From NCBI GenBank assembly GCA_017883205.1, contig JADGNZ010000046.1, forward strand, positions 1 to 47,170: a stretch of DNA of 47,170 nt, in the 5' to 3' direction. Shown piece after piece: positions 16,343 to 26,094 of this stretch (position 1 is its first letter; each line of letters starts with the position of its first letter). A program made the translations under genes and the position numbers. Source of the DNA: Thermoanaerobaculia bacterium (GTDB lineage Bacteria; Acidobacteriota; Thermoanaerobaculia; Gp7-AA8). The notes beneath the pieces were generated by a model. That model saw only the letters and a list, made by a program, of their open reading frames with translations. It ran no database searches and was not told the DNA's origin.

Positions 16343-19300
16343 CTACGAACGGCTGTCGACGCGCAGGGACTTGGCGCTCTTGCTGTCTTGCCCGATGGGT
16401 GTCGCAGGCTCCGATGGAATGATGAGTGGCAGCGTGACGAAGAACGTTGATCCGTGGCCGATGCCGGCGCTCTCGACGCGAACTGTCCCGCCGTGAAGTT
16501 TCAGGATCTGCGCGACGATCGAGAGACCGATGCCGAGGCCGGGGAGGTGGCCGGGTGAGCCCTCGGCCTGGCGGTATAGCTCGAACACGTGCGGGGCGAA
16601 GTCGGCGCTGATGCCGGCGCCGGTATCCTTGACCGACAACCGCGCGGCGTTGCCGTACTGCTCCAACCTGACCTCGATCGAGCCGCCGGGCTCCGTGAAC
16701 TTGATGGCGTTGCTGATCAGGTTCCAGACGACCTGGAGGAGCCGCACGCGATCACCAGTCAACCGAGCTGGATCGAGGATCAGGTGCGAGGAAACGTGAA
16801 GCTCTTTCGCGGTGGCGCTGATGGCGGTCATCTCGATCGCCGAGCGGACGACTGCCGCAAAGTCGATCGTCTCCATCTCCACGCTCAGCTTCTGTTCGCG
16901 GATGCGCGTAACGTCCAGCAGGTCCTCGGTGAAGACGCGGAGCAGGTTCGCGCTCTCGTCGACGCGAAGAAGCGCTTCGTTGCTCATGTCGTGATTTCGG
17001 AGCCCGAGTTGCACCCAGCCGATGATCGAGGTGAGCGGGGTTCGCAGCTCGTGCGCGACGGCGCCGATGAATGCGTCCTTGTAGCGGTTGGCGCTTTCGG
17101 CTTCCCGAAACAGCATGGCCGTGTCGATGGCGATCGCGGCGCGTTGCGACAACTCCTCGGCGAGCTGCAGGTCGATAGGCTCGTACTGACGTCGCGACGA
17201 CGAAAACGTCGTCGTCCCGAGAACCTTGCCGCGAACGATGAGCGGCACGCTGATCAATGATCGCAAGCCGAGGGCGCCGATGAGCTGCGTGATCTTCGCC
17301 TCGGGACGGATGCCGCTCTCTTTCGAGTTGGCGATGTCCGTCAGCAGCACCGATTTGCGCAGGCGCAGCGCTTGCGGCGCACCGGGAGCGTTCTCCGGCT
17401 CGCTGAACGCTGCCTGCTGGAACTGCAGGGCCAGCTCGCGCAGGACGGGATTGGCGTGCGAGACGGTGAGATGGCGGATCGAGCCGTCTTCGTTGACCAG
17501 ATCGACGGCGCACCAATCGGCGAATGCCGCGGTGGACAGGCGCGCCAGCGATTCGAGCGTCGTCTCGTAGTCGAGCGATGACGCCAGCAGTGCGCTTGCC
17601 TGCGACAGCATGTTCGCGGCGCGCGTGGCCTCCTCGGCGACGAGAACGCTTCGCTTGAGAACGTTGATGTCGAGAACGGCAACGATGGCGCCGTCGATCT
17701 TTCCGTCCGAGGTGCGGTAGGCGCGGATGCGCAACATCCGCCAGTCGCCTTCGGAGTTTTGCACTTCCATATCTGCCGGTGTGGCGGTCTCGATGACTGC
17801 GCCGACGAGCTTCTCGAGGAGCGTCACATCGAGTGTCGATCGCGCCGTGCTGAGCGGCCGGCCGACGGCATCCTGACGAAGGTTGAACAGCAGGCCGGCA
17901 GTGACGTTGAAGCGTCGGATCGTCAGGTCGCGGCCGACGAAGAGGATCGGGATCTCCACAGCGCCGAGGAGATTCTCGATGTCGTCGTTAATCCGTACCA
18001 GGGCCGTGTTGCGTTGACGGAGCTCGTCGTTGAGCGTGCTCAATTCCTCGTTCGCCGACTGCAGCTCTTCCTTGGCAGTCTCCAGCTCCTCGTTCGTGCT
18101 GCGCAACTCTTCGTCGCTCGATTGCGCTTCCTCGGCGGCGGCCGCGGCCTCGTCGGCCAACTGCTCACGATCGTCGATGGCAGCGGCCAGGGCGTGGCGC
18201 AGACCGTCGATTTCTTTCCGCTTTACGGACGATTCCGCCTTGCGCGCCGGCTGCTCCGGAACTGTGTGGAACACGATCCAGCAGCGGTCGTGGCCCGGCA
18301 GCGAAGTGCCGTACGGAATCACCTTGAACGAAATGCAGCGGCGGCCTTCGTCATCCGTGACGAGGATGTCTTCCACGCTGACCGTTGTTTTTTCGCGGAA
18401 TGCCTTGCGCACGGCGGGCCGCAGCACGGCCAGGACTTCGTGGTGACGGATCAGGCCGAAGAGGTTGAGCGAGACCTCGCCCGGTTCCAGCGCAAGGAAC
18501 GGCGCGATCTCGCCGCGAATGCGCGTGATCTCCATCTGCTCATTGATCAGCACTCCGGCCGGCGCGAGATGCGTGGCCAGGAATGCATCGTCTTCTTCAT
18601 GAGCAACGCCTGCCGCCCGGCGTGCGGATGGCGCGGAGGAGGCCGTGGCAATGCTGGGATGGAGCGAGCGGGGCACGACATCGAAGGTGGCCAGCGCACC
18701 CGGTACCTGGCTCTTGCGGTAGATCAACGGCTTCGTCGACACGGCGCTGAGTTGATTTGTAGTGCGGAGATTCTCGGAGCTGCCGAGCATCAGGAATCCG
18801 CCCGGAGCGAGCGCGTACTGCAGGAGCGCGGCTGCTTTCTTCTGCAGCTCGGGATCGAAATAGATCAGAACATTGCAGCAGGTGACGAGATCGATCCGCG
18901 AGTACGGCGGGTCGCGGGTGACGTCGTGCGCGGCGAAGATGCAGAGCTCGCGCACGGCTTTCGTGATTTTGTAGCCGCCGGGTACCTGCGTGAAGAATTT
19001 CGCCAGACGCTCTTTCGACACTCCGTCGACGGCGCGCTCCGTGTACAACGCGGCCCGTGCCTTGCGAAGCGACTGCTCGTTGATGTCGGTGCCGTAGATC
19101 GAGATGCGCGGAGGATTGGGATGCCCGTCGATGAACTCGAGCAGCGTCATGGCCAGGGAGTAAACCTCTTCGCCGGTCGAGCATCCCGCCACCCAGATGC
19201 GCACGCTGTGCTCGGAGTGCCGGTTCTGGACGATGGCGGGAAACACGATCGTCTTCAGCGCCTCGAAACGCGCGGGCTCCCGGAAGAACGAGGTGACGCC

Positions 19301-20188
19301 GATCAGCAGGTCCTGGTAGAGCGTCTCCACTCCGGCGGGGTCTTTCTCGAGGGAGTCGGCGTAACTGTTCAGGTCTTCGTGGTTGCCGAGGAGGACGCGA
19401 CGGAGGATGCGGCGCTCGATGCTGGCACTCTTGAAGTGCGCGAAGTCGACGGGATGTGTGGCGCGCAGCAGTTGGAGGATTCGCTCGAATTCGGGAGCGT
19501 CCGGCTTCGCGTCCGGCTCGCTGTCGGCCGTGCCGTCACGGCGGGCGATGCTCACGAGCTGGGCCGCGATACCGGCGGGCGGGAGAATGAAGTCCGCCGC
19601 CGCGGCCGCGGCCCGAGGCATCACGTCGAACTTCGCGGTCTCGGGACTCTGGGCGAAGGTAATGCCGCCGGCATCGCGAATGGCCTGAAGACCCGCCGCG
19701 CCGTCCGAATCGGCGCCGGAAAGCACGACGCCGATCGCGCGAATCGTCCGGTCCTGAGCCAGCGAGGCGAAGAAGGTGTCCATTGGACGATGCGGAACTT
19801 TCGGCCTGCGAGGGGACAGCCGGAGGAGATCGGATTGAATCGTCAGCTCGGCATCGGGCGGGATGACGTAGATGTGATCAGGCTCGATCGGCATCCTGTC
19901 GGTAGCTTCCTGCACGGGAATCGTGGTCGCGCCAGCCAGGATATTGACGAGCATGCTGTCGTGGCGCGGATCGAGGTGCTGCACCAGAACGAAGGCCAGC
20001 CCGCTGTCGGGAGGAATGGCCGTGAGGAGATCGAGGAAGGCATCGAGTCCTCCCGCCGACGCGCCGATGCCGACCACGCGCATGACGCTCTCGGGTGCGA
20101 AACGCTCCGCGTCATCCTGCGTGGGAGGAGCCTGTTGCTGCTTCCCTCGGTGGACTGGGAGCTTGAGCCGTGATCGAGTAGCCGCCAA
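16343..20188 (-). CDS. CheB-CheR-PAS-GAF hybrid histidine kinase
   Basis: A 1281-residue fusion protein. CheB methylesterase domain: ~35-215, with the triad S44 (G-A-S-A-G-G), H71 (Q-H-L-D-P) and D162. CheR methyltransferase: ~225-495, with A-G-C-S-T-G-E-E-V-Y for SAM binding and C-N-V-L-I-Y-F. A PAS-like segment lies at ~525-640, then a long glutamate-rich coiled coil (~680-755), PAS (~755-860), GAF (~885-1020), HisKA with H near 1046 (A-H-E-L-R-T-P), and HATPase (~1130-1260, N-L-I-S-N-A-I-K-F, D-T-G-A-G-I, G-L-G-I-G-L-S). No receiver domain is present, so its phosphorylation partner is elsewhere. The start is TTG at 20188, preceded by AAAGGA. Such fusions are known in many environmental bacteria; a chemotaxis receptor is not in the window. 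Confidence 0.93.
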   Translation of the reverse strand: MAATRSRLKLPVHRGKQQQAPPTQDDAERFAPESVMRVVGIGASAGGLDAFLDLLTAIPPDSGLAFVLVQHLDPRHDSMLVNILAGATTIPVQEATDRMPIEPDHIYVIPPDAELTIQSDLLRLSPRRPKVPHRPMDTFFASLAQDRTIRAIGVVLSGADSDGAAGLQAIRDAGGITFAQSPETAKFDVMPRAAAAAADFILPPAGIAAQLVSIARRDGTADSEPDAKPDAPEFERILQLLRATHPVDFAHFKSASIERRILRRVLLGNHEDLNSYADSLEKDPAGVETLYQDLLIGVTSFFREPARFEALKTIVFPAIVQNRHSEHSVRIWVAGCSTGEEVYSLAMTLLEFIDGHPNPPRISIYGTDINEQSLRKARAALYTERAVDGVSKERLAKFFTQVPGGYKITKAVRELCIFAAHDVTRDPPYSRIDLVTCCNVLIYFDPELQKKAAALLQYALAPGGFLMLGSSENLRTTNQLSAVSTKPLIYRKSQVPGALATFDVVPRSLHPSIATASSAPSARRAAGVAHEEDDAFLATHLAPAGVLINEQMEITRIRGEIAPFLALEPGEVSLNLFGLIRHHEVLAVLRPAVRKAFREKTTVSVEDILVTDDEGRRCISFKVIPYGTSLPGHDRCWIVFHTVPEQPARKAESSVKRKEIDGLRHALAAAIDDREQLADEAAAAAEEAQSSDEELRSTNEELETAKEELQSANEELSTLNDELRQRNTALVRINDDIENLLGAVEIPILFVGRDLTIRRFNVTAGLLFNLRQDAVGRPLSTARSTLDVTLLEKLVGAVIETATPADMEVQNSEGDWRMLRIRAYRTSDGKIDGAIVAVLDINVLKRSVLVAEEATRAANMLSQASALLASSLDYETTLESLARLSTAAFADWCAVDLVNEDGSIRHLTVSHANPVLRELALQFQQAAFSEPENAPGAPQALRLRKSVLLTDIANSKESGIRPEAKITQLIGALGLRSLISVPLIVRGKVLGTTTFSSSRRQYEPIDLQLAEELSQRAAIAIDTAMLFREAESANRYKDAFIGAVAHELRTPLTSIIGWVQLGLRNHDMSNEALLRVDESANLLRVFTEDLLDVTRIREQKLSVEMETIDFAAVVRSAIEMTAISATAKELHVSSHLILDPARLTGDRVRLLQVVWNLISNAIKFTEPGGSIEVRLEQYGNAARLSVKDTGAGISADFAPHVFELYRQAEGSPGHLPGLGIGLSIVAQILKLHGGTVRVESAGIGHGSTFFVTLPLIIPSEPATPIGQDSKSAKSLRVDSRS

Positions 20189-20352
20189 TTCGCATCCTTT
20201 CAGGGATAACCGTCTGAGGATGGAGGCAGTGGCGGAACGCGCAGGTGAACTGACAGAGTGGCAGGGAACACGAGCGCGCCTGTCGCGACCGGCTGATCAG
20301 GCGTGTACCGATGTAACGGTTTCAGCATACGCCTGCATTTCCGATATGGCAA
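20168..20352 (-). promoter_or_regulatory. Promoter plus ~130-nt leader element upstream of the hybrid kinase (copy A)
   Basis: Reading the minus strand, this ~180-bp stretch has TTGCCA (20347-20352), a 17-bp spacer and TATGCT (20324-20329). A conserved segment ACGCCTGATCAGCCGG (about 20289-20304) follows, then a variable GC-rich part, then GCCTCCATCCTCAGACG (about 20212-20228), and finally GAAAGGATGCGA and the start of the kinase gene. A diverged second copy, with the same blocks in the same order, lies upstream of the ice-binding protein gene at 25343-25525. The conserved blocks with a variable middle suggest a structured leader or shared regulatory region. I could not match it to a known riboswitch. 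Confidence 0.6.
20324..20352 (-). promoter_or_regulatory. Sigma-70-like promoter for hybrid kinase gene
   Basis: On the minus strand the hexamers TTGCCA and TATGCT are separated by exactly 17 bp, close to the housekeeping consensus. The -10 hexamer is also present in copy B of the leader element (25497-25502), where the -35 is weaker. Predicted transcription would begin about 130 nt before the TTG start. Confidence 0.5.
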
Positions 20353-20406
20353 CGAAACGAGGTTGGGTTTCCCCAAGTACCGGGTGCAGTCAGACGTCCT
20401 GCGCAT

Positions 20407-21810
20407 CTATGTGCTCGACGTTCTTATGCTCGATTGGTCACCATAACTACGTGGCAGGAGCACTCGAAACGTCGATCCCCGGTTGGGCCCGGTCTCCAAT
20501 TCGAGGCCGGCGTCGAGCAGCTCGCAAAGCCGTTTGACGATCGATAGACCGACTCCCTCTCCCGGTTGCTGATTCGGCGGCAACGAGCTCGATTCGGAGG
20601 GGAGGGTAGCGGCCGGAGCCATGTCGCGCCGGCGATCGTTGCTCGCTTCTTTGGCTTCGTTGGATACTTCCGTGGCTTCATGAAGCTCTTGCGCCAGCGG
20701 CGCGGCATGGGCCTCGTCGATGCCCGGACCGGTATCCTGAACCGAGAATGTCCAGCGGTCGGTGTCGCGCGTCTTGTCGAGTCCCCACGTAACGGAAACG
20801 CCGCCGCGCTGCGTGTACTTCACGGCGTTGAGCAGCAGGTTCTGCAGGATGCGAATGACTTTTGGTTTGTCGCCTTCAACCGGCAGGGAGCCTGGCCCGT
20901 CCATCTTCAGAAAGAGGCCGCGGTCGGTGGCTGCGGCCTGGGATGCCGTGCAGAAATCCCGCAGCAGCGCGGCGGCATCAAACGTCGAGAGCTCGCGCTG
21001 TTCGTGACCTGCTTCGAGACGTGCCAGGCTGAGGAGATCGTTCAACATCTCGTGGAGTGAGACGACGCTCTTACTGAGCATGTCTGCGACTTCCACGCGA
21101 ATCGGCTCCGGCATTTCTGCTCCGGCAGCGTTGAGCAGGGTTGCGGCGCCTTTGACGACCGTCACGCTGCCGCGGAGGTCGTGCGCTGCGGTGCGCCACG
21201 CCTCGGCACGCGAACGCTCCATCGCGTGCAGCGCGGAAAGCGCGATCTCGAGATCGTTGACGTGTCCGGCCGATTCACTCTGTTGGAGGCGTCCGTACTG
21301 CGTCGCGCTTCCGGTGACGCCGTCCGCACACAATTTCGCCCAGGCCAGACGCACCGCAGGCATCACGGCCGGATCGAGATCGGGGTGCGCCGCGGCGTGG
21401 CGCTCCAACTCGGCCGCGACACTGATCTGCAGATATCCCCATTCACGAATCAGCTCGCTCAATTGATATCCCTGCTGCCAGCGCTGCATGCCGTGATCGA
21501 AGACCTTCTCGTTCTCGATCCTCTCGGCCGCGGCGTCTGGCTCATCCGGCCACGAACTGATCGTGTGGGCCAGGCAGTCGAGAACGGCCGGAATGTGATC
21601 GTTGAACTGCGCACGCGAGAGCGATGCCGCAACGTTGCGTCCCGGGAGAGTTTCGCCGTAGGCGCGCCACGCTTCGAGGATTGCGTCGCGCCGGCTGAGC
21701 AATTTCGCCGCGACGTCCTTCATCTGCTCTCGGGCCGGATTGGCGGAGAACAGCAAATGGATGCCGTTCGGGTTGTCAGTCATTGCGGTCGCGCGTTCTT
21801 GCTCTGGCAT
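20407..21810 (-). CDS. Sensor histidine kinase with RsbRD-like N-terminal domain
   Basis: A 467-residue cytoplasmic kinase. Residues ~30-145 resemble the RsbRD/RsbR N-terminal sensor domain (L-L-S-R-R-D-A-I-L-E-A-W near the start). HisKA has H near residue 210 (T-A-A-H-D-L-R-G-S-V). HATPase has N-L-L-L-N-A-V-K-Y, D-T-G-P-G-I-D and G-E-G-V-G-L-S-I-V. A charged insertion of about 45 residues (E-A-T-E-V-S-N-E-A-K and onward) separates the G1 and G2 boxes, longer than usual. The ATG at 21810 has AAGGAG six bases upstream. The hybrid kinase gene lies downstream on the same strand but has its own promoter-like leader. No response regulator is adjacent. Confidence 0.9.
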   Translation of the reverse strand: MPEQERATAMTDNPNGIHLLFSANPAREQMKDVAAKLLSRRDAILEAWRAYGETLPGRNVAASLSRAQFNDHIPAVLDCLAHTISSWPDEPDAAAERIENEKVFDHGMQRWQQGYQLSELIREWGYLQISVAAELERHAAAHPDLDPAVMPAVRLAWAKLCADGVTGSATQYGRLQQSESAGHVNDLEIALSALHAMERSRAEAWRTAAHDLRGSVTVVKGAATLLNAAGAEMPEPIRVEVADMLSKSVVSLHEMLNDLLSLARLEAGHEQRELSTFDAAALLRDFCTASQAAATDRGLFLKMDGPGSLPVEGDKPKVIRILQNLLLNAVKYTQRGGVSVTWGLDKTRDTDRWTFSVQDTGPGIDEAHAAPLAQELHEATEVSNEAKEASNDRRRDMAPAATLPSESSSLPPNQQPGEGVGLSIVKRLCELLDAGLELETGPNRGSTFRVLLPRSYGDQSSIRTSST

Positions 21811-22030
21811 GGCGGCTCCTTCTCGTCCGTGGCGGTTACGTCTGCTTCGCAGATCGAGCGAGGAGCTCTACGTTCAGGCCGATATCTCTTAATCAGTGCA
21901 AGAACGCGCCCACGCCAACCTCGAGTTCACTTTCTCTTCGTTGAGCGAAGAAAAAGCACGGATGAGCGGGAAGTGGCGCCGCTATTGCGATGAGCACCGG
22001 TGAAGCATCGCCAATAGGAGGCATTCACCC

Positions 22031-22669
22031 ATGTCTAATACAAAGATCTTGTCTCGCAATATGGTCCTGGCCGGAGCGATCACGTTCCTGCTGGGCTCGT
22101 CCGCTTTTGCGCAATATGGTAGCAATCCGGGGCCAGATCGTTCGGCCGACCGGGGATATGCAAACCGGGTCGTGGAAGGCACGGTCGCGTCCGTCGCAGT
22201 CGCCCGTAACGGACAGCGCATCCGCATGACGAACGGTATGGACCTGTTCGTTCCAAACTCGATCACTGCGCAGAATCAGGGCCGGCGCTACGGCGCGGCC
22301 ACTCTGTTGCCAGGCGACGTCGTCCGCATGACCGTCTATAGCCGCGAGGGCGATGGACGAGACGCCCGGGTTCTCGGATTCGAGCTTCTGCAGTCGAATT
22401 CGAACAATTCGTACTTCGGCAACGATCGCCGCATGAGCGGCACGATCGTTTCGTTTGACCGCCGCAATCGTTCGATGGTCGTGCAGACCGACCGAGGCCG
22501 TACCGTCTCTGTCGACCTCAGCGCATACAACGGCCGGATGGGCTGGGATACCTTCCGTCGCGGCAACCGCGTCAGCATCACCGGGCGCATGGACCGCGGA
22601 ACCGTCATGGTCGAGGACATCCGCGTCGACAATAACGACCGGAATGACCAATACGATCACCGCCGGTAA
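22031..22669 (+). CDS. Secreted DUF5666-like beta-barrel protein
   Basis: A 212-residue exported protein with a signal peptide ending A-F-A-Q at about residue 28. The body holds two similar OB-like or DUF5666-like halves: V-E-G-T-V-A-S-V-A-V then I-R-M-T-N-G-M, and M-S-G-T-I-V-S-F-D then M-V-V-Q-T-D-R-G, each followed by a G-D/G-N-x-V-x-M/I-T/S-G-R pattern. The C-terminus is Asp/Asn/Arg-rich. No catalytic residues are evident; a binding or structural role is likely. AGGAGG precedes the ATG. A strong hairpin follows the gene at 22694-22720. The family assignment is tentative. Confidence 0.7.
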   Translation: MSNTKILSRNMVLAGAITFLLGSSAFAQYGSNPGPDRSADRGYANRVVEGTVASVAVARNGQRIRMTNGMDLFVPNSITAQNQGRRYGAATLLPGDVVRMTVYSREGDGRDARVLGFELLQSNSNNSYFGNDRRMSGTIVSFDRRNRSMVVQTDRGRTVSVDLSAYNGRMGWDTFRRGNRVSITGRMDRGTVMVEDIRVDNNDRNDQYDHRR

Positions 22670-22693
22670 GTCTCAGTCATCTTGAGTCGTCAG

Positions 22694-22720
22694 CGTGCAC
22701 CCTCATCGCGAGGGTGCACG
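22694..22720. terminator. Bidirectional hairpin between convergent genes
   Basis: Perfect 11-bp stem CGTGCACCCTC/GAGGGTGCACG with loop ATCGC. It lies after the secreted-protein gene stop (22669) and overlaps the last codons and stop of the convergent exosortase-associated gene (22703). A short T-rich stretch (gttttac) follows about 14 bases later on the plus strand. Confidence 0.75.
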
Positions 22721-23305
22721 CGTGTTCTTGGCTGTTTTACGCCTGTCGCTCTTTCTCGAATCCAGCGGCACTTCAGTGGAGGGGCGGAACAGCCACCAGA
22801 GTGCGAAGCCCGCTCCGAATACGCCGATGAGGCTGTAGAAATGAGCGCCCGCTCCCCAGAAGTTCCGCGCGAACGCCCCGTAGTTCCGTTCGCTCCACGG
22901 CCCCAGCCGCAGTGCATAAATCGACTCGACGTTCACAATGATCGCCGCAATATGCACCGCTACGAGCGCGAGGCTCGCCAGCACGAAGCCCAGGATGTTT
23001 CGATCGCTGATGGGACGCCGGTTCACTGCAAAGAGCGTCGTGAGCAGGACGATGTTTGCCGTCAGGTCCATGAGCGTCAGGCCGGGACGCGGAGATGACC
23101 GCGGGAAGTCATCGCGGTCGATCGTCAACTCCGTTCCGCCGGCGATCAGGCGCGTGACCGCCGGCCGCTCGGCCATCCGGATCAACGGCTCGGTCAGCGT
23201 GGCCAGCAGGCGGGCGTAGGGCGCGGACAGACCCCACCACAACGCCAGCCCGAGCAGGAAGCCGGCCGCGCCTTTAGCGAGATTTGGCCAGAGGTCTTTC
23301 AGCAA
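22703..23305 (-). CDS. Exosortase H-associated membrane protein
   Basis: A 200-residue protein with a membrane helix at ~12-36, a short periplasmic part, then three more helices (~78-93, 104-125, 148-169) and a basic tail. Its position directly after xrtH, with overlapping reading frames (the xrtH stop is at 23274, this start at 23305, TTG), matches the membrane protein regularly encoded beside exosortase H. It is presumed to assist sorting of IPTL-tailed proteins; its exact role is unknown. The assignment rests mainly on context and topology. Confidence 0.72.
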   Translation of the reverse strand: MLKDLWPNLAKGAAGFLLGLALWWGLSAPYARLLATLTEPLIRMAERPAVTRLIAGGTELTIDRDDFPRSSPRPGLTLMDLTANIVLLTTLFAVNRRPISDRNILGFVLASLALVAVHIAAIIVNVESIYALRLGPWSERNYGAFARNFWGAGAHFYSLIGVFGAGFALWWLFRPSTEVPLDSRKSDRRKTAKNTRAPSR

Positions 23306-23789
23306 ACTTCCAGCTCCAGAGAACGAACATCGAGATGGCGGCGAGAATGATCAGCGACTGCCAGACGGCAACGTGGAAAAGGTCGAACACCTGCCGGTAG
23401 TGCTCGCCGAGCCAGAAGAGAGAGCTGAGACGGACGATGTTCAGCAGCTCGATGGCGACGCTGCAAATCACGAGACCGATCAGACGCGATCGTAGCGTGG
23501 CCGGGAATGCCAGGATCGCCGCGGCCAGCAGAAGCGTGGCTTCCACGCCATTGCAGCCGTTACGAACGTCGAGTGCGAATCGCGCGGATCGCATGATCGT
23601 TCCCTGCGTATCAACGCCTCCCTCGATCCCCCGCAGCAGTCCCGCCGACCCTCGCGCCACGACCTCGGTGAACGGAACGATGACGGCATCGTTCACCTGA
23701 TTGAGCGCGATCACCGCATACAGAATCAGAAGAGCTGCGCCGAACTTCGCGACAAAGATGATCCGGGGTTTGACGGGGCTCGCTGCCAT
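23274..23789 (-). CDS. xrtH: Exosortase H (XrtH)
   Basis: A 171-residue polytopic membrane protein of the exosortase/archaeosortase family. The predicted catalytic residues are all visible: C79 in R-N-G-C-N-G-V-E-A, R120 in N-I-V-R-L and H139 in F-D-L-F-H-V. Its short length (~170 residues, no C-terminal EpsI-like extension) and the sequence around the Cys match XrtH, the exosortase dedicated to IPTL-CTERM proteins. Exosortases are thought to cleave C-terminal tails of exported proteins at the inner membrane, leading to surface attachment or release. The next gene overlaps it. Two proteins with IPTL-like tails lie nearby (15458-15988 and 23871-25214). Confidence 0.88.
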   Translation of the reverse strand: MAASPVKPRIIFVAKFGAALLILYAVIALNQVNDAVIVPFTEVVARGSAGLLRGIEGGVDTQGTIMRSARFALDVRNGCNGVEATLLLAAAILAFPATLRSRLIGLVICSVAIELLNIVRLSSLFWLGEHYRQVFDLFHVAVWQSLIILAAISMFVLWSWKFAERPLAKSR

Positions 23790-23820
23790 TCTGGTGGTTG
23801 GAGGGTACCAGATCCGACTG

Positions 23821-23855
23821 ACGTGAAAGGCCCGTAGATGACGAGCCTTTCACGT
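23821..23855 (-). terminator. Hairpin after the ice-binding protein gene
   Basis: Perfect 11-bp arms ACGTGAAAGGC (23821-23831) and GCCTTTCACGT (23845-23855) with a 13-nt loop, between the ice-binding protein stop (23871) and the xrtH start (23789). No T run follows on the minus strand, so it may attenuate rather than fully block read-through into xrtH. Confidence 0.6.
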
Positions 23856-23870
23856 CCGGTTTTGGAGATG

Positions 23871-25214
23871 TCAGATCGAGAGCCGGTTCATGACGAACAA
23901 CCCGGCGGCGGCAAGAAGAACCATGAGAATCGTCAGGCCGGCGATGTTGAGCGTCGGGCCGCCGGCGGGTGTGAGAGCTGCGAGGATCGCAATCGTGTAG
24001 GCGCGGCTACCCTGACAGCCGGCAGCGTCCGTTGCCCGGATCGTAACGTTGAAGATGCCCGACACCTGCGGTGCGCCACTGATGAGTCCCGTGGCTGGGT
24101 TGAGTGAGAGGCCGGTCGGCAGTGCTCCAGCGGCGATGGTGAAGGTATACGGCGAGGTTCCGCCCGATGCGATGATCGTTTGTGCGTAGGGCTGCTGCAC
24201 AGCCCCTGGTGGCAACGTGGTGGGGCTCAGGATGATGGCCGGGCAGCCCGGACTGGTGATCGTGACCGTGTATTCCCGGCTACCCGAACAGCCGGTCGCG
24301 TCGGTCGCCGTGATCGTGAACTCGAACGTCCCGGCGGTGGTGGGCGTTCCGGTGATCGCGCCCGTGACGCTGTTCAGAATCAGATTCGTGGGCAGTGCGC
24401 CGCTCGATACCGAAAACGCATAGGGTGACGTCCCGCCCGAGGCAGATACGGTCTGATTGTACGGAATGCCGACGGTGCCGTTCGGCAGCGACGCCGGATT
24501 CACGGTGATGATCGGACAGATCGAGACGCCGCAGGTGTTGACGTTGTTGGTGTCGAGTGTCACGGCACCATTGCGCGCCAGCGCTCTGCCGTTGGTGTTG
24601 GACCCGGTCGTGAGCGTGATGCTCGATAGTGCCAGGATGTCGCCCACGAACGTCGAGCCTGTGCCGAGGGTCGCGGAGCTGCCGACCTGCCAGAAGACCT
24701 TGTTGCAACTGCTGCCGCCGTTGTTGATGACCGCGACGGACGAGGCGCTGGCCGTCGTGAGCGTGCTCCCGGTTTTGAACAGGAACAGCGCGTTCGCGTT
24801 GCCGAGGGCATCCAGGGTCAGGGCTCCGGTGAGTTGCGCGGATGTGGCGAAGCAGTAGACGCCGGGAGTCAGCGTCAGTCCTCCGAGATTCTGACCCGTC
24901 AGATCGACCGTACACGGTGTGGTCGCGATGTTGTTGTAGGCGGTGGTGAGGTCGTTCTGCGCCTGCTGGGCCACGGCATCGTTGCTGTGGATCGCTCCTC
25001 CGACGACGGTGCCGGGAGGAAAGCCGGTCACGGCGCTGCCGGGACTTACACCGACGTTGCCATTCACCGTCGTCGCGCCCGTGTTGGTGACGGTGGATCC
25101 GCCGAGAACGCCGAAATTCTGCGCGGTGCCGAGCGAAATCTGGGCGAATGCCGCGGATGCGCTGAAGAGAAGCGTCGCCAGCCCGATGCTCGTGAGAAGG
25201 GTGTTTCGTTTCAT
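23871..25214 (-). CDS. Ice-binding-like (DUF3494) adhesin with Ig-like domains and IPTL-type tail
   Basis: A 447-residue protein. Signal peptide: 1-24. DUF3494 ice-binding-like beta-solenoid: ~25-230 (L-G-T-A-Q-N-F-G-V-L-G-G, T-V-N-G-N-V-G-V-S-P-G, L-T-P-G-V-Y, L-F-L-F-K-T). Two putative-Ig repeats of ~90 residues each follow (~232-325 and ~328-412), each with Y-x-Q-T-x-x-A-S-G-G-T-S-P-Y and G-T-F/G-I-F. The C-terminus is P-T-L-N-I-A-G, a hydrophobic helix and N-R-L: an exosortase H-type sorting tail, again lacking Trp. DUF3494 proteins bind ice or act as surface adhesins. The xrtH gene lies next, on the same strand. ATG 25214 is preceded by GAAAGAGGC. Confidence 0.9.
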   Translation of the reverse strand: MKRNTLLTSIGLATLLFSASAAFAQISLGTAQNFGVLGGSTVTNTGATTVNGNVGVSPGSAVTGFPPGTVVGGAIHSNDAVAQQAQNDLTTAYNNIATTPCTVDLTGQNLGGLTLTPGVYCFATSAQLTGALTLDALGNANALFLFKTGSTLTTASASSVAVINNGGSSCNKVFWQVGSSATLGTGSTFVGDILALSSITLTTGSNTNGRALARNGAVTLDTNNVNTCGVSICPIITVNPASLPNGTVGIPYNQTVSASGGTSPYAFSVSSGALPTNLILNSVTGAITGTPTTAGTFEFTITATDATGCSGSREYTVTITSPGCPAIILSPTTLPPGAVQQPYAQTIIASGGTSPYTFTIAAGALPTGLSLNPATGLISGAPQVSGIFNVTIRATDAAGCQGSRAYTIAILAALTPAGGPTLNIAGLTILMVLLAAAGLFVMNRLSI

Positions 25215-25674
25215 GTCAGCCTCTTTCGATAGGAACGTGATTTTGCGCTAGCGGTCAGGACGCCGATGACCGGCAAGTATCTTGGTTTTGTGGCGGGGTA
25301 GGGAGATCCTTCTGCAGTCCGCGCGCCGGGCGGGGCAGTTGGCTGTAGATCGAGTCGCCATGGGCGTCGCATTCTTTCGGGTCGTCTGAGGATGGAGGCT
25401 GTGGTGGATGGTGCGCGATACCCGTGGCAACGTTGCGGAAGGTCTCGTGCGCGTCCCTCGCGGCCGGCTGATCAGGCGTTTACTGAACGAACGCGCAGCA
25501 TACCCCTTTTTCCGGATGTCAGCAGCGTGCCGCGGCCGCAGTGCTTTTCTGTGAGGCAGGCCCTGCTTGTTCCCGATCGGTGGCTCGCCGCCGCCTCGCC
25601 TCTGACTTTCCGATCAGGCAACAGTTCGGCTGTCGATTGCCACTCATGGCAGGGCGCGTGCAGGATCTTCACGC
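25215..25674. other. 460-bp gene-poor region holding leader element copy B
   Basis: The region between the divergent ice-binding and XRE genes. Its left part holds a diverged copy of the leader seen upstream of the hybrid kinase (25343-25525). On the minus strand a short frame beginning at an ATG near 25361 (M-A-T-R-S-T) ends at 25248 and resembles the first codons of the hybrid kinase (M-A-A-T-R-S), so it looks like a duplicated gene start rather than a gene. In the right part (25526-25674) I see nothing supportable. Confidence 0.5.
25343..25525 (-). promoter_or_regulatory. Leader-like element upstream of ice-binding protein gene (copy B)
   Basis: This diverged duplicate of the element at 20168-20352 has the same order of blocks on the minus strand: TATGCT (25497-25502), ACGCCTGATCAGCCGG (about 25463-25478), GCCTCCATCCTCAGACG (about 25383-25399), GAAAGAATGCGA, and a trace of the kinase gene's first codons. 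It lies about 130 bp upstream of the ice-binding protein ATG. The -35 region is weak compared with copy A. Confidence 0.55.
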
Positions 25675-26094
25675 ATGCCTGGTCGAATTCTCAGACAACT
25701 CCGTGAATCGAAGGGACGCAGCCAGGCAGATGTTGCCCGAAGCGCGGGAATCTCACCGGCGCAACTGGCGCGCCTCGAAGCAAATCAACGCGGACTCTAC
25801 GTCGAGGACTTCGTGAACATTGCCGCGGTCCTGGGCGAAAAGCCCGGCAATCTCCTTCCGAACGACATGGGCGATATCGCGCACCTGAAACCGCTCATCG
25901 ATCGGCTGGCAACCATCCGCCCCGAGGTCCTTCCTCGGGTCACGGCCATCATCGAAAAGATTGTCCTTCTCACCGAGGACATGACCGCAGCGGCGAAGCT
26001 GCCTTCGCAAAAGCAGGGCAGAGCTCCCCGATCGACGACGCCTGCCACAGGCAAACGGAAAGGCAGCGGAGAATCCCGCCGCAGCGGGCTTTGA
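25675..26094 (+). CDS. XRE-family DNA-binding protein
   Basis: A 139-residue protein. Residues 4-60 form a lambda-repressor-like HTH (L-R-E-S-K-G-R-S-Q-A-D-V-A-R-S-A-G-I-S, L-A-R-L-E-A-N-Q-R-G). A helical middle (~68-105) may dimerise. The last 35 residues are basic and low-complexity. The target is unknown. It diverges from the ice-binding protein gene across a 460-bp region that contains the leader element, so control of that gene is possible but unproven. Confidence 0.8.
   Translation: MPGRILRQLRESKGRSQADVARSAGISPAQLARLEANQRGLYVEDFVNIAAVLGEKPGNLLPNDMGDIAHLKPLIDRLATIRPEVLPRVTAIIEKIVLLTEDMTAAAKLPSQKQGRAPRSTTPATGKRKGSGESRRSGL

What the first reader, a model, noticed from the sequence alone, without database searches (positions are those of the whole stretch)
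20168..25525. A ~180-bp leader-like element duplicated upstream of the hybrid kinase and the ice-binding adhesin
Copies at 20168-20352 and 25343-25525 keep the same block order on the minus strand: TATGCT-like -10, ACGCCTGATCAGCCGG, variable GC-rich middle, GCCTCCATCCTCAGACG and an AAAGGATGCGA or AAAGAATGCGA before the start codon. The middle diverges while the blocks persist, as expected of a structured RNA or a shared regulator-binding region. Copy B even keeps a trace of the kinase's first codons, so it was likely copied from a kinase-type gene start. I could not match it to a known riboswitch.
Basis: partly seen in the sequence, partly recalled or inferred. Interest (0 to 1): 0.75.

Follow-up and report, generated by a model that had tools for sequence, protein, structure and literature searches.

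The report
Kinase leader RNA with decayed second copy
In a group of uncultivated Acidobacteria, a short conserved stretch in front of sensor-kinase genes looks like a folded RNA that hides the ribosome-binding site, and the second copy noticed here is most likely a decayed leftover.

Summary
The duplication is real: copies A (20168-20352) and B (25343-25525) align at 70% over about 150 nt (E 3e-11). It is not private to this genome. Relatives of A sit directly before the start codon of the orthologous CheB-CheR-PAS-GAF-histidine kinase in 5 other genomes of the family, and before a different PAS hybrid kinase in another family of the order. That kinase's two closest orthologues lack it, so the leader behaves as a module. 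In the seven full copies, a scan of all helices gives four best helices that fit one pseudoknotted fold: P1 and P2 (long hairpin), P3 pairing the Shine-Dalgarno region (CAUCC/GGAUG), and P0 tying the P3 loop to CGCCUGA (0 of 300 column shuffles). Covariation is thin (3 pairs) and folding energies are ordinary. No Rfam family matched. The promoter above carries twin palindromes 30 bp apart, shared with an XRE regulator gene. Copy B keeps the blocks but has lost helix pairs, its Shine-Dalgarno and its operator: probably a relic, not a working leader of the ice-binding gene. Most likely: a new, narrowly distributed translational-control leader of sensor kinases. Ligand or trans-factor unknown.

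The parts
20182..20322 (-). copy A: presumed transcribed leader of the CheB-CheR kinase, from just below the -10 to the start codon
   Evidence: covariance model match 20188-20308, 118.2 bits (A is one of the model's seven sequences); relatives in 6 other genomes
20337..20353 (.). palindromic operator of copy A, ATTTCCGATATGGCAAC, overlapping the -35
   Evidence: 1 mismatch to ATTKCCN5GGMAAT; same place in 5 other kinase promoters with 0-1 mismatches
20324..20352 (-). sigma-70-like promoter of copy A: TTGCCA, 17 nt, TATGCT
   Evidence: consensus scan, 1 found where shuffles give 1.4; similar hexamers in relatives. Transcript start not shown
20297..20303 (-). copy A P0 5' strand CGCCUGA, pairs with UCAGACG (one C.A mismatch)
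   Evidence: helix scan; pair counts
20284..20294 (-). copy A P1 5' strand
20272..20280 (-). copy A P2 5' strand
20236..20244 (-). copy A P2 3' strand
20224..20234 (-). copy A P1 3' strand
20218..20222 (-). copy A P3 5' strand CAUCC (anti-Shine-Dalgarno)
20211..20217 (-). copy A P0 3' strand UCAGACG, in the P3 loop
20193..20200 (-). Shine-Dalgarno AAAGGA and P3 3' strand GGAUG of copy A
   Evidence: 6 nt before the TTG start at 20188
16343..20188 (-). CheB-CheR-PAS-GAF-histidine kinase, 1281 aa
   Evidence: Pfam; full-length orthologues at 71-77% in 5 genomes of the order
25343..25525 (-). copy B: decayed relative of the leader with a trace of a kinase start
   Evidence: model match 25365-25483, 56.9 bits; 21 of 31 helix pairs against 23-30 in the others; no operator at its promoter
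25248..25361 (-). 37-codon stub frame after copy B, beginning MATRS (kinase: MAATRS)
   Evidence: translation
25675..26094 (+). XRE-type regulator gene, 139 aa, divergent from copy B
   Evidence: Pfam HTH_3 E 3.2e-10; 7 homologous genes in 6 other genomes of the order
25606..25652 (.). twin palindromes of the XRE gene, starts 30 bp apart, 69 nt before its start codon
   Evidence: weak here (2 and 4 mismatches of 12 set positions), but same place and spacing as in 7 other XRE genes
23871..25214 (-). ice-binding-like surface protein with He_PIG domains
   Evidence: Pfam, translation
23274..23789 (-). exosortase H
   Evidence: NCBIfam TIGR04177, 116.1 bits over cut-off 86
20407..21810 (-). second histidine kinase with an RsbRD_N match, between the copies
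   Evidence: Pfam; 73% relative beside the kinase in G003

Best explanation
Copy A is the 5' untranslated leader of a sensor-kinase gene and acts as a cis-regulatory RNA. Transcription starts just below TATGCT (inferred). The leader folds into a long imperfect hairpin (P1 and P2) held inside a pseudoknot: CGCCUGA near the 5' end pairs with UCAGACG (P0), which lies in the loop of a short hairpin (P3) whose 3' strand GGAUG covers part of the Shine-Dalgarno AAAGGA. With P0 and P3 formed, ribosomes are kept off the start codon; an unknown ligand, protein or condition shifts the balance (inferred). A rival hairpin, CGCCUG with the CAGGCG that overlaps P2, is complete in four copies and one pair short in a fifth, and could be the alternative state (inferred). 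Above the leader, twin palindromes 30 bp apart, the lower one on the -35, let an XRE-type regulator, which has like sites before its own gene, control kinase and regulator together (inferred from site placement). The leader is a module of its own: in another family of the order it precedes another kinase, without the operators and without the regulator gene. Copy B is the relic of a second leader plus kinase start beside the regulator gene and probably no longer works as a leader.
For: Leader before the start codon of 6 of 6 full-length kinase orthologues found among the 19 genomes of the order and before a PAS hybrid kinase in G018. The G018 kinase's orthologues in G003 (69%) and G002 (56%) have other upstream DNA. 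Helix scan on 7 sequences: the four best disjoint helices (2.34, 1.97, 1.91, 1.80; next 1.54) are P2, P3, P1, P0 and fit one fold; the fourth score and the sum of four were reached by 0 of 300 column shuffles in each of two kinds of shuffle, the best single score by 1 and 2. RNAalifold alone gives P1, P2 and P3. Standard pairs in 88% of cells against 28-49% when partners are slid (with the tool's warning that this favours a structure derived from the same sequences). Gap columns: 27 of 30 outside the helices, though 20 of these are one run in the P2 loop; 5 of 7 gap runs lie fully outside. Two-sided changes that keep pairs at columns 24-82, 34-75 and 39-70, and G012 turns the P0 C.A mismatch into C-G. 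In G010, where P3 loses two pairs, the predicted fold covers GGA of the Shine-Dalgarno with another hairpin, CGGG-U-CUCC with GGAG-CCCG. Operators: lower site at 0-1 mismatch in 6 of 6 kinase promoters, second site 30 bp above with at most 3 mismatches in 5 of 6; twin sites at -68 to -70 of 8 of 8 XRE genes. B: 21 of 31 pairs, AAAGAA for AAAGGA, no operator.
Against: Covariation does not stand out: 3 pairs with two-sided change, reached by 37 of 500 shuffles; covariation score reached by 272 of 500; RNAalifold's covariation term is +0.96, slightly unfavourable. P0 and P3 hardly vary, so they carry almost no covariation. Single-sequence folding is ordinary: z from -2.55 to +0.68 in eight copies. 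Pairing of the Shine-Dalgarno in computed ensembles (0.50-0.68) is not above shuffled leaders (14 to 73 of 100 at least as high, eight copies; pseudoknots not modelled). G010, a copy with an intact kinase, keeps only 23 of 31 pairs, close to B's 21. Only seven full copies exist in what could be searched. The promoter is poor in G003 and not recognisable in G018 (by eye); the consensus scan finds no more promoters than shuffles. No expression data.
Confidence: 0.6

Rival explanations
1. The blocks are DNA sites: the conserved leader is a downstream operator region for one or more transcription factors, and the apparent helices are by-products of conserved GC-rich sites.
For: The blocks are more invariant than helices require; covariation is weak; folding energies are ordinary.
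Against: The better operator candidates, the twin palindromes, lie above the -10 and are a different sequence. Four mutually compatible helices score higher than in 300 of 300 column-shuffled alignments of each kind. The element ends at the Shine-Dalgarno in all seven full copies, and G018 keeps the leader without operators or regulator gene.
Confidence: 0.2
2. The leader encodes a short conserved peptide (attenuator or small protein); in A and G017 an ATG overlapping the -10 opens a frame of 42 and 40 codons through the blocks.
For: Both frames share Y-T-P-D-Q-P-V-A-T-G-A and R-V-P-P.
Against: One- and two-base gaps between the blocks in G009, G003, G018 and G012 break the frame; the frame is stopped early in B (by eye); in the 3' block departures from the majority letter fall on codon positions 1, 2, 3 as 8, 10, 4 (the same count on the gapped 5' part, not set to a frame, was 16, 10, 10 and says nothing); the ATG would lie in the presumed -10.
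Confidence: 0.05
3. Copy B is a working leader or promoter that brings the ice-binding gene under the same control as the kinase.
For: It keeps P0 (6 of 7 pairs, as all copies do), the named blocks and a TATGCT-like -10.
Against: 21 of 31 pairs, GAAUG for GGAUG, AAAGAA for AAAGGA, no palindrome at its -35, and the ice-binding start is about 150 nt further down behind a stub frame. No second leader was found near the ice-binding genes of G009, G003 and G010 (model search of L034, L035, L038; sequence read).
Confidence: 0.15
4. The element is a mobile or repeated sequence that happens to lie before genes.
For: It occurs twice in this genome and before a second gene type in G018.
Against: At most two credible copies per genome in 148 class genomes, each on the sense strand of a kinase start or its trace, and it goes with the kinase orthologue in 6 of 6.
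Confidence: 0.03

Closest known systems
Translational riboswitches and leader RNAs with a pseudoknot that covers the Shine-Dalgarno (for example SAM-II and preQ1-II; recalled)
   Same: Would work alike: a 5' leader in which a pseudoknot and an anti-Shine-Dalgarno strand gate ribosome access.
   Different: No Rfam family reaches its threshold; no ligand known; found before sensor kinases.
Acido-1 and Acido-Lenti-1 RNA motifs (RF01686, RF01687; PMC2864571, one table passage seen)
   Same: Candidate structured RNAs named for Acidobacteria.
   Different: Listed there as not cis-regulatory; no match at gathering score in the window nor at E up to 5 in six relatives.
Cro/C1-type (XRE) autoregulated regulators with tandem operators (general type recalled)
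   Same: HTH_3 protein, palindromic sites before its own gene and a divergent or nearby target.
   Different: Binding is not shown; I know of no described system with this pair of 17-bp palindromes at 30 bp, and did not search the literature for one.

Membership tests
Any family of Rfam release 15 | score above the curated gathering threshold | tested here: not met
   0 matches in the window; in six relatives 7 matches at E up to 5, all far below threshold; one, flg-Rhizobiales (20.9 bits, threshold 55, E 1.6), overlaps the first part of the G017 leader
Structured cis-regulatory leader RNA | fixed place directly before start codons, in more than one gene context | tested here: met
   6 CheB-CheR kinases and one PAS hybrid kinase
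Structured cis-regulatory leader RNA | conserved secondary structure beyond chance | tested here: met
   four compatible helices, 0 of 300 column shuffles of each kind; single-sequence energies do not show it
Structured cis-regulatory leader RNA | covariation supporting the helices | tested here: inconclusive
   3 two-sided pairs, 37 of 500 shuffles reach it
Riboswitch | direct binding of a small ligand that changes expression | not testable with these tools
   no ligand candidate from the gene context
Cro/C1 (XRE) regulator with autoregulated operators | HTH domain of the family | tested here: met
   PF01381 E 3.2e-10, 40.3 bits over cut-off 23
Cro/C1 (XRE) regulator with autoregulated operators | operator-like sites before own gene and target | tested here: met
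   twin palindromes before 8 of 8 XRE genes; before kinases, lower site in 6 of 6 and second site in 5 of 6
Cro/C1 (XRE) regulator with autoregulated operators | binding of the protein to the sites | not testable with these tools
   needs a gel shift or similar

The most novel reading that the evidence does not exclude
A previously undescribed class of pseudoknotted RNA switch, found so far in one order of uncultivated Acidobacteria, that senses a signal and gates translation of large sensor kinases, so that the sensor itself is made only when an RNA sensor above it allows, under an XRE regulator whose gene lies by a surface ice-binding and exosortase H locus.
Probability: 0.35. Interest if true: 0.7.

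Novelty: new member of a known kind. Interest (0 to 1): 0.5.

Why it matters
Leader RNAs are mostly known before metabolic, transport or ribosomal genes (recalled); one that gates a sensor kinase would be less usual. If the fold is right, this is a defined 120-nt RNA with clear mutations to test, and copy B is a natural decayed version that shows which positions may be lost. It also links an XRE regulator, a CheB-CheR sensor kinase and an exosortase H/ice-binding surface protein in one neighbourhood.

Tried and rejected
Peptide-coding leader: rejected on frame-breaking gaps and codon positions. Known RNA family: none above threshold. tRNA or tmRNA: none in the window. More relatives by covariance model: 148 class genomes and 396 phylum genomes, the latter drawn from a larger group and without G017 and G003. 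In one search, 35 of 148 genomes had some match at E up to 1. Besides the known copies the best was G009:C41 at E 3.7e-6; I read it and set it aside, since it shares ACACGCCTGAT but otherwise is a GCGGGCAGCG-type inverted repeat without the CATCCTCAGACG block. Five more stretches (E 0.002 to 0.05: G007, two of G008, G025, G129) were read and none holds that block; the others were not read. The four further hits (E 0.001-0.007 per genome, about what 396 genomes give by chance) were not read. Block patterns in phylum, class and viral collections gave only known copies or nothing. Shine-Dalgarno occlusion in ensembles: not above shuffles, told as evidence against. Genome-wide operator count: 26 sites against 16 for the reversed control, so single sites are mostly chance. 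Tree of the eight copies: too little signal (supports 0.31-0.82). Papers: seven searches listed 2, 0, 6, 1, 0, 0 and 0 papers, none of which by its listing treats this element; only listings and one passage of PMC2864571 were seen.

Full report
Observation. Copies A and B exist as described. A against B: 70% over 150 columns, E 3e-11. The block GCCTCCATCCTCAGAC with up to two mismatches occurs twice in the 6.37 Mb genome, at these two places.

Surroundings. The window is one whole contig (C84) of the genome. The gene below A is a 1281-residue protein with CheB, CheR, PAS, GAF, HisKA and HATPase domains. Between the copies lie a second histidine kinase, two proteins without a Pfam or NCBIfam match at E up to 0.001, an exosortase H and an ice-binding-like protein. 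Divergent from B is an XRE-type regulator at 25675-26094. The five nearest kinases in named records come from MAGs labelled Acidobacteria or Thermoanaerobaculia.

Relatives. blastn with A over 100 genomes (own included) gave six credible matches outside the window, best E 3.5e-35 to 1.7e-6: G017, G009, G003, G018, G012, G010 (with the cut-off at 10 every genome had some match, the rest at 0.004 or worse, and the list was cut). Among the 19 genomes of the order, six hold a full-length kinase orthologue (own plus five at 71-77%); one search listed 14 matches in 12 genomes, the other eight being seven paralogues at 34-43% and one C-terminal fragment at 70% in G006. All six orthologues carry the leader at the start codon. 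G018 has the leader before a 790-residue kinase with three PAS stretches and a receiver domain. Orthologues of that kinase in G003 (69%) and G002 (56%) have other upstream DNA; with filters off the model's best matches in those two loci were E 0.044 and 0.26, and 0.011 over all eleven loci searched. The model over 148 class and 396 phylum genomes gave no further credible copy, so the element looks restricted to the order, within the genomes held.

Structure. On seven full copies (A4), RNAalifold finds P1, P2 and P3. A scan of all possible helices ranks P2, P3, P1 and then CGCCUGA with UCAGACG (P0) as the four best, and these share one pseudoknotted fold, apart from column 96, which P0 and a sixth P3 pair could both use. 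Shuffling alignment columns singly or in pairs, 300 times each, never reached the fourth score or the sum of four; the best single score was reached 1 and 2 times. Of 30 gap columns 27 lie outside the helices, 20 of them in one run. Two-sided changes exist at three pairs but do not stand out from shuffles (37 of 500). In the predicted folds the outer part of the P2 loop also pairs differently in different copies (GAG with CUC in G017, GAGAG with CUCUC in G018, GUG with CAC in A; read, not counted). Results against: ordinary folding energies, an unfavourable covariation term and no excess of Shine-Dalgarno pairing in ensembles without pseudoknots.

Promoter. Six of six kinase promoters have a 17-bp palindrome ATTKCCN5GGMAAT (0-1 mismatch of 12 set positions) on the -35, and five of six a second one exactly 30 bp above (1-3 mismatches; A's has 6). 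All eight XRE genes in seven genomes have twin sites 30 bp apart at -68 to -70, with 2 to 6 mismatches in the two together, the window's pair being the weakest. In the nine loci scanned, 18 site pairs (each site up to 4 mismatches) stand 30 bp apart, 12 of them at these promoters and 6 elsewhere; other spacings of 18-60 have 2 to 11 pairs, and 14 and 15 are high (26 and 23), presumably because the palindrome overlaps itself. In G003 regulator and kinase are divergent and share one set of sites. G018 and B have no such site at the promoter.

Copy B. B keeps 21 of 31 pairs where the others keep 23 (G010) to 30, has AAAGAA in place of AAAGGA, lacks an operator and is followed by a 37-codon stub that starts like the kinase. 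It scores 56.9 bits against 75.7-124.6 for the seven from which the model was built. It is nearer to G010 and G017 (76%) than to A (71%), so it may come from an older second leader and not from A; tree support is 0.70-0.81. The G003 order (second kinase below the kinase, regulator divergent from it) suggests a former leader-kinase unit beside the regulator whose body was lost here; this is inference.

Reading. The leader most likely controls translation of a sensor kinase, under transcriptional control by the XRE regulator. Shown: conservation, place, module behaviour, compatible helices. Inferred: transcript start, ribosome gating, signal, XRE binding.

Noticed in passing
window 25606-25652; L034 11346/11376; L035 9495/9525; L037 3730/3760; L038 8530/8560 and 9704/9734; L200 2505/2535; L198 7548/7578: Twin 17-bp palindromes, starts 30 bp apart, before all eight XRE genes of this group at -68 to -70 from the start codon; a likely autoregulatory operator.
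   Followed up: yes
window 22703-25214: Exosortase H beside an ice-binding-like protein whose tail (GPTLNIAGLTILMVLLAAAGLFVMNR) looks like an exosortase H sorting signal (motif recalled); ice-binding relatives lie near the kinase in G009, G003 and G010.
   Followed up: partly
L038 8598-8969 and 9772-10155: G010 carries two tandem copies of the XRE gene, each with its own twin sites.
   Followed up: partly
L036 10388-10530: Directly above the G018 leader lies a run of short repeats (CCTGTCTCCTGTCTCCTG), a possible trace of how the leader came to a different kinase.
   Followed up: no
L198 7187-7525: G007 has the XRE gene with twin sites but no full-length kinase orthologue and no leader; other targets of the regulator could be sought there.
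   Followed up: no
window 22025-22660 and 22703-23305: Two proteins of the exosortase neighbourhood without a Pfam or NCBIfam match; relatives of the second lie beside exosortase H in G017, G003 and G010.
   Followed up: no
L149 5491-5608: A stretch in G009 that begins ACACGCCTGAT like the leader and then forms a long GCGGGCAGCG inverted repeat (model E 3.7e-6); taken as chance, not explained.
   Followed up: partly
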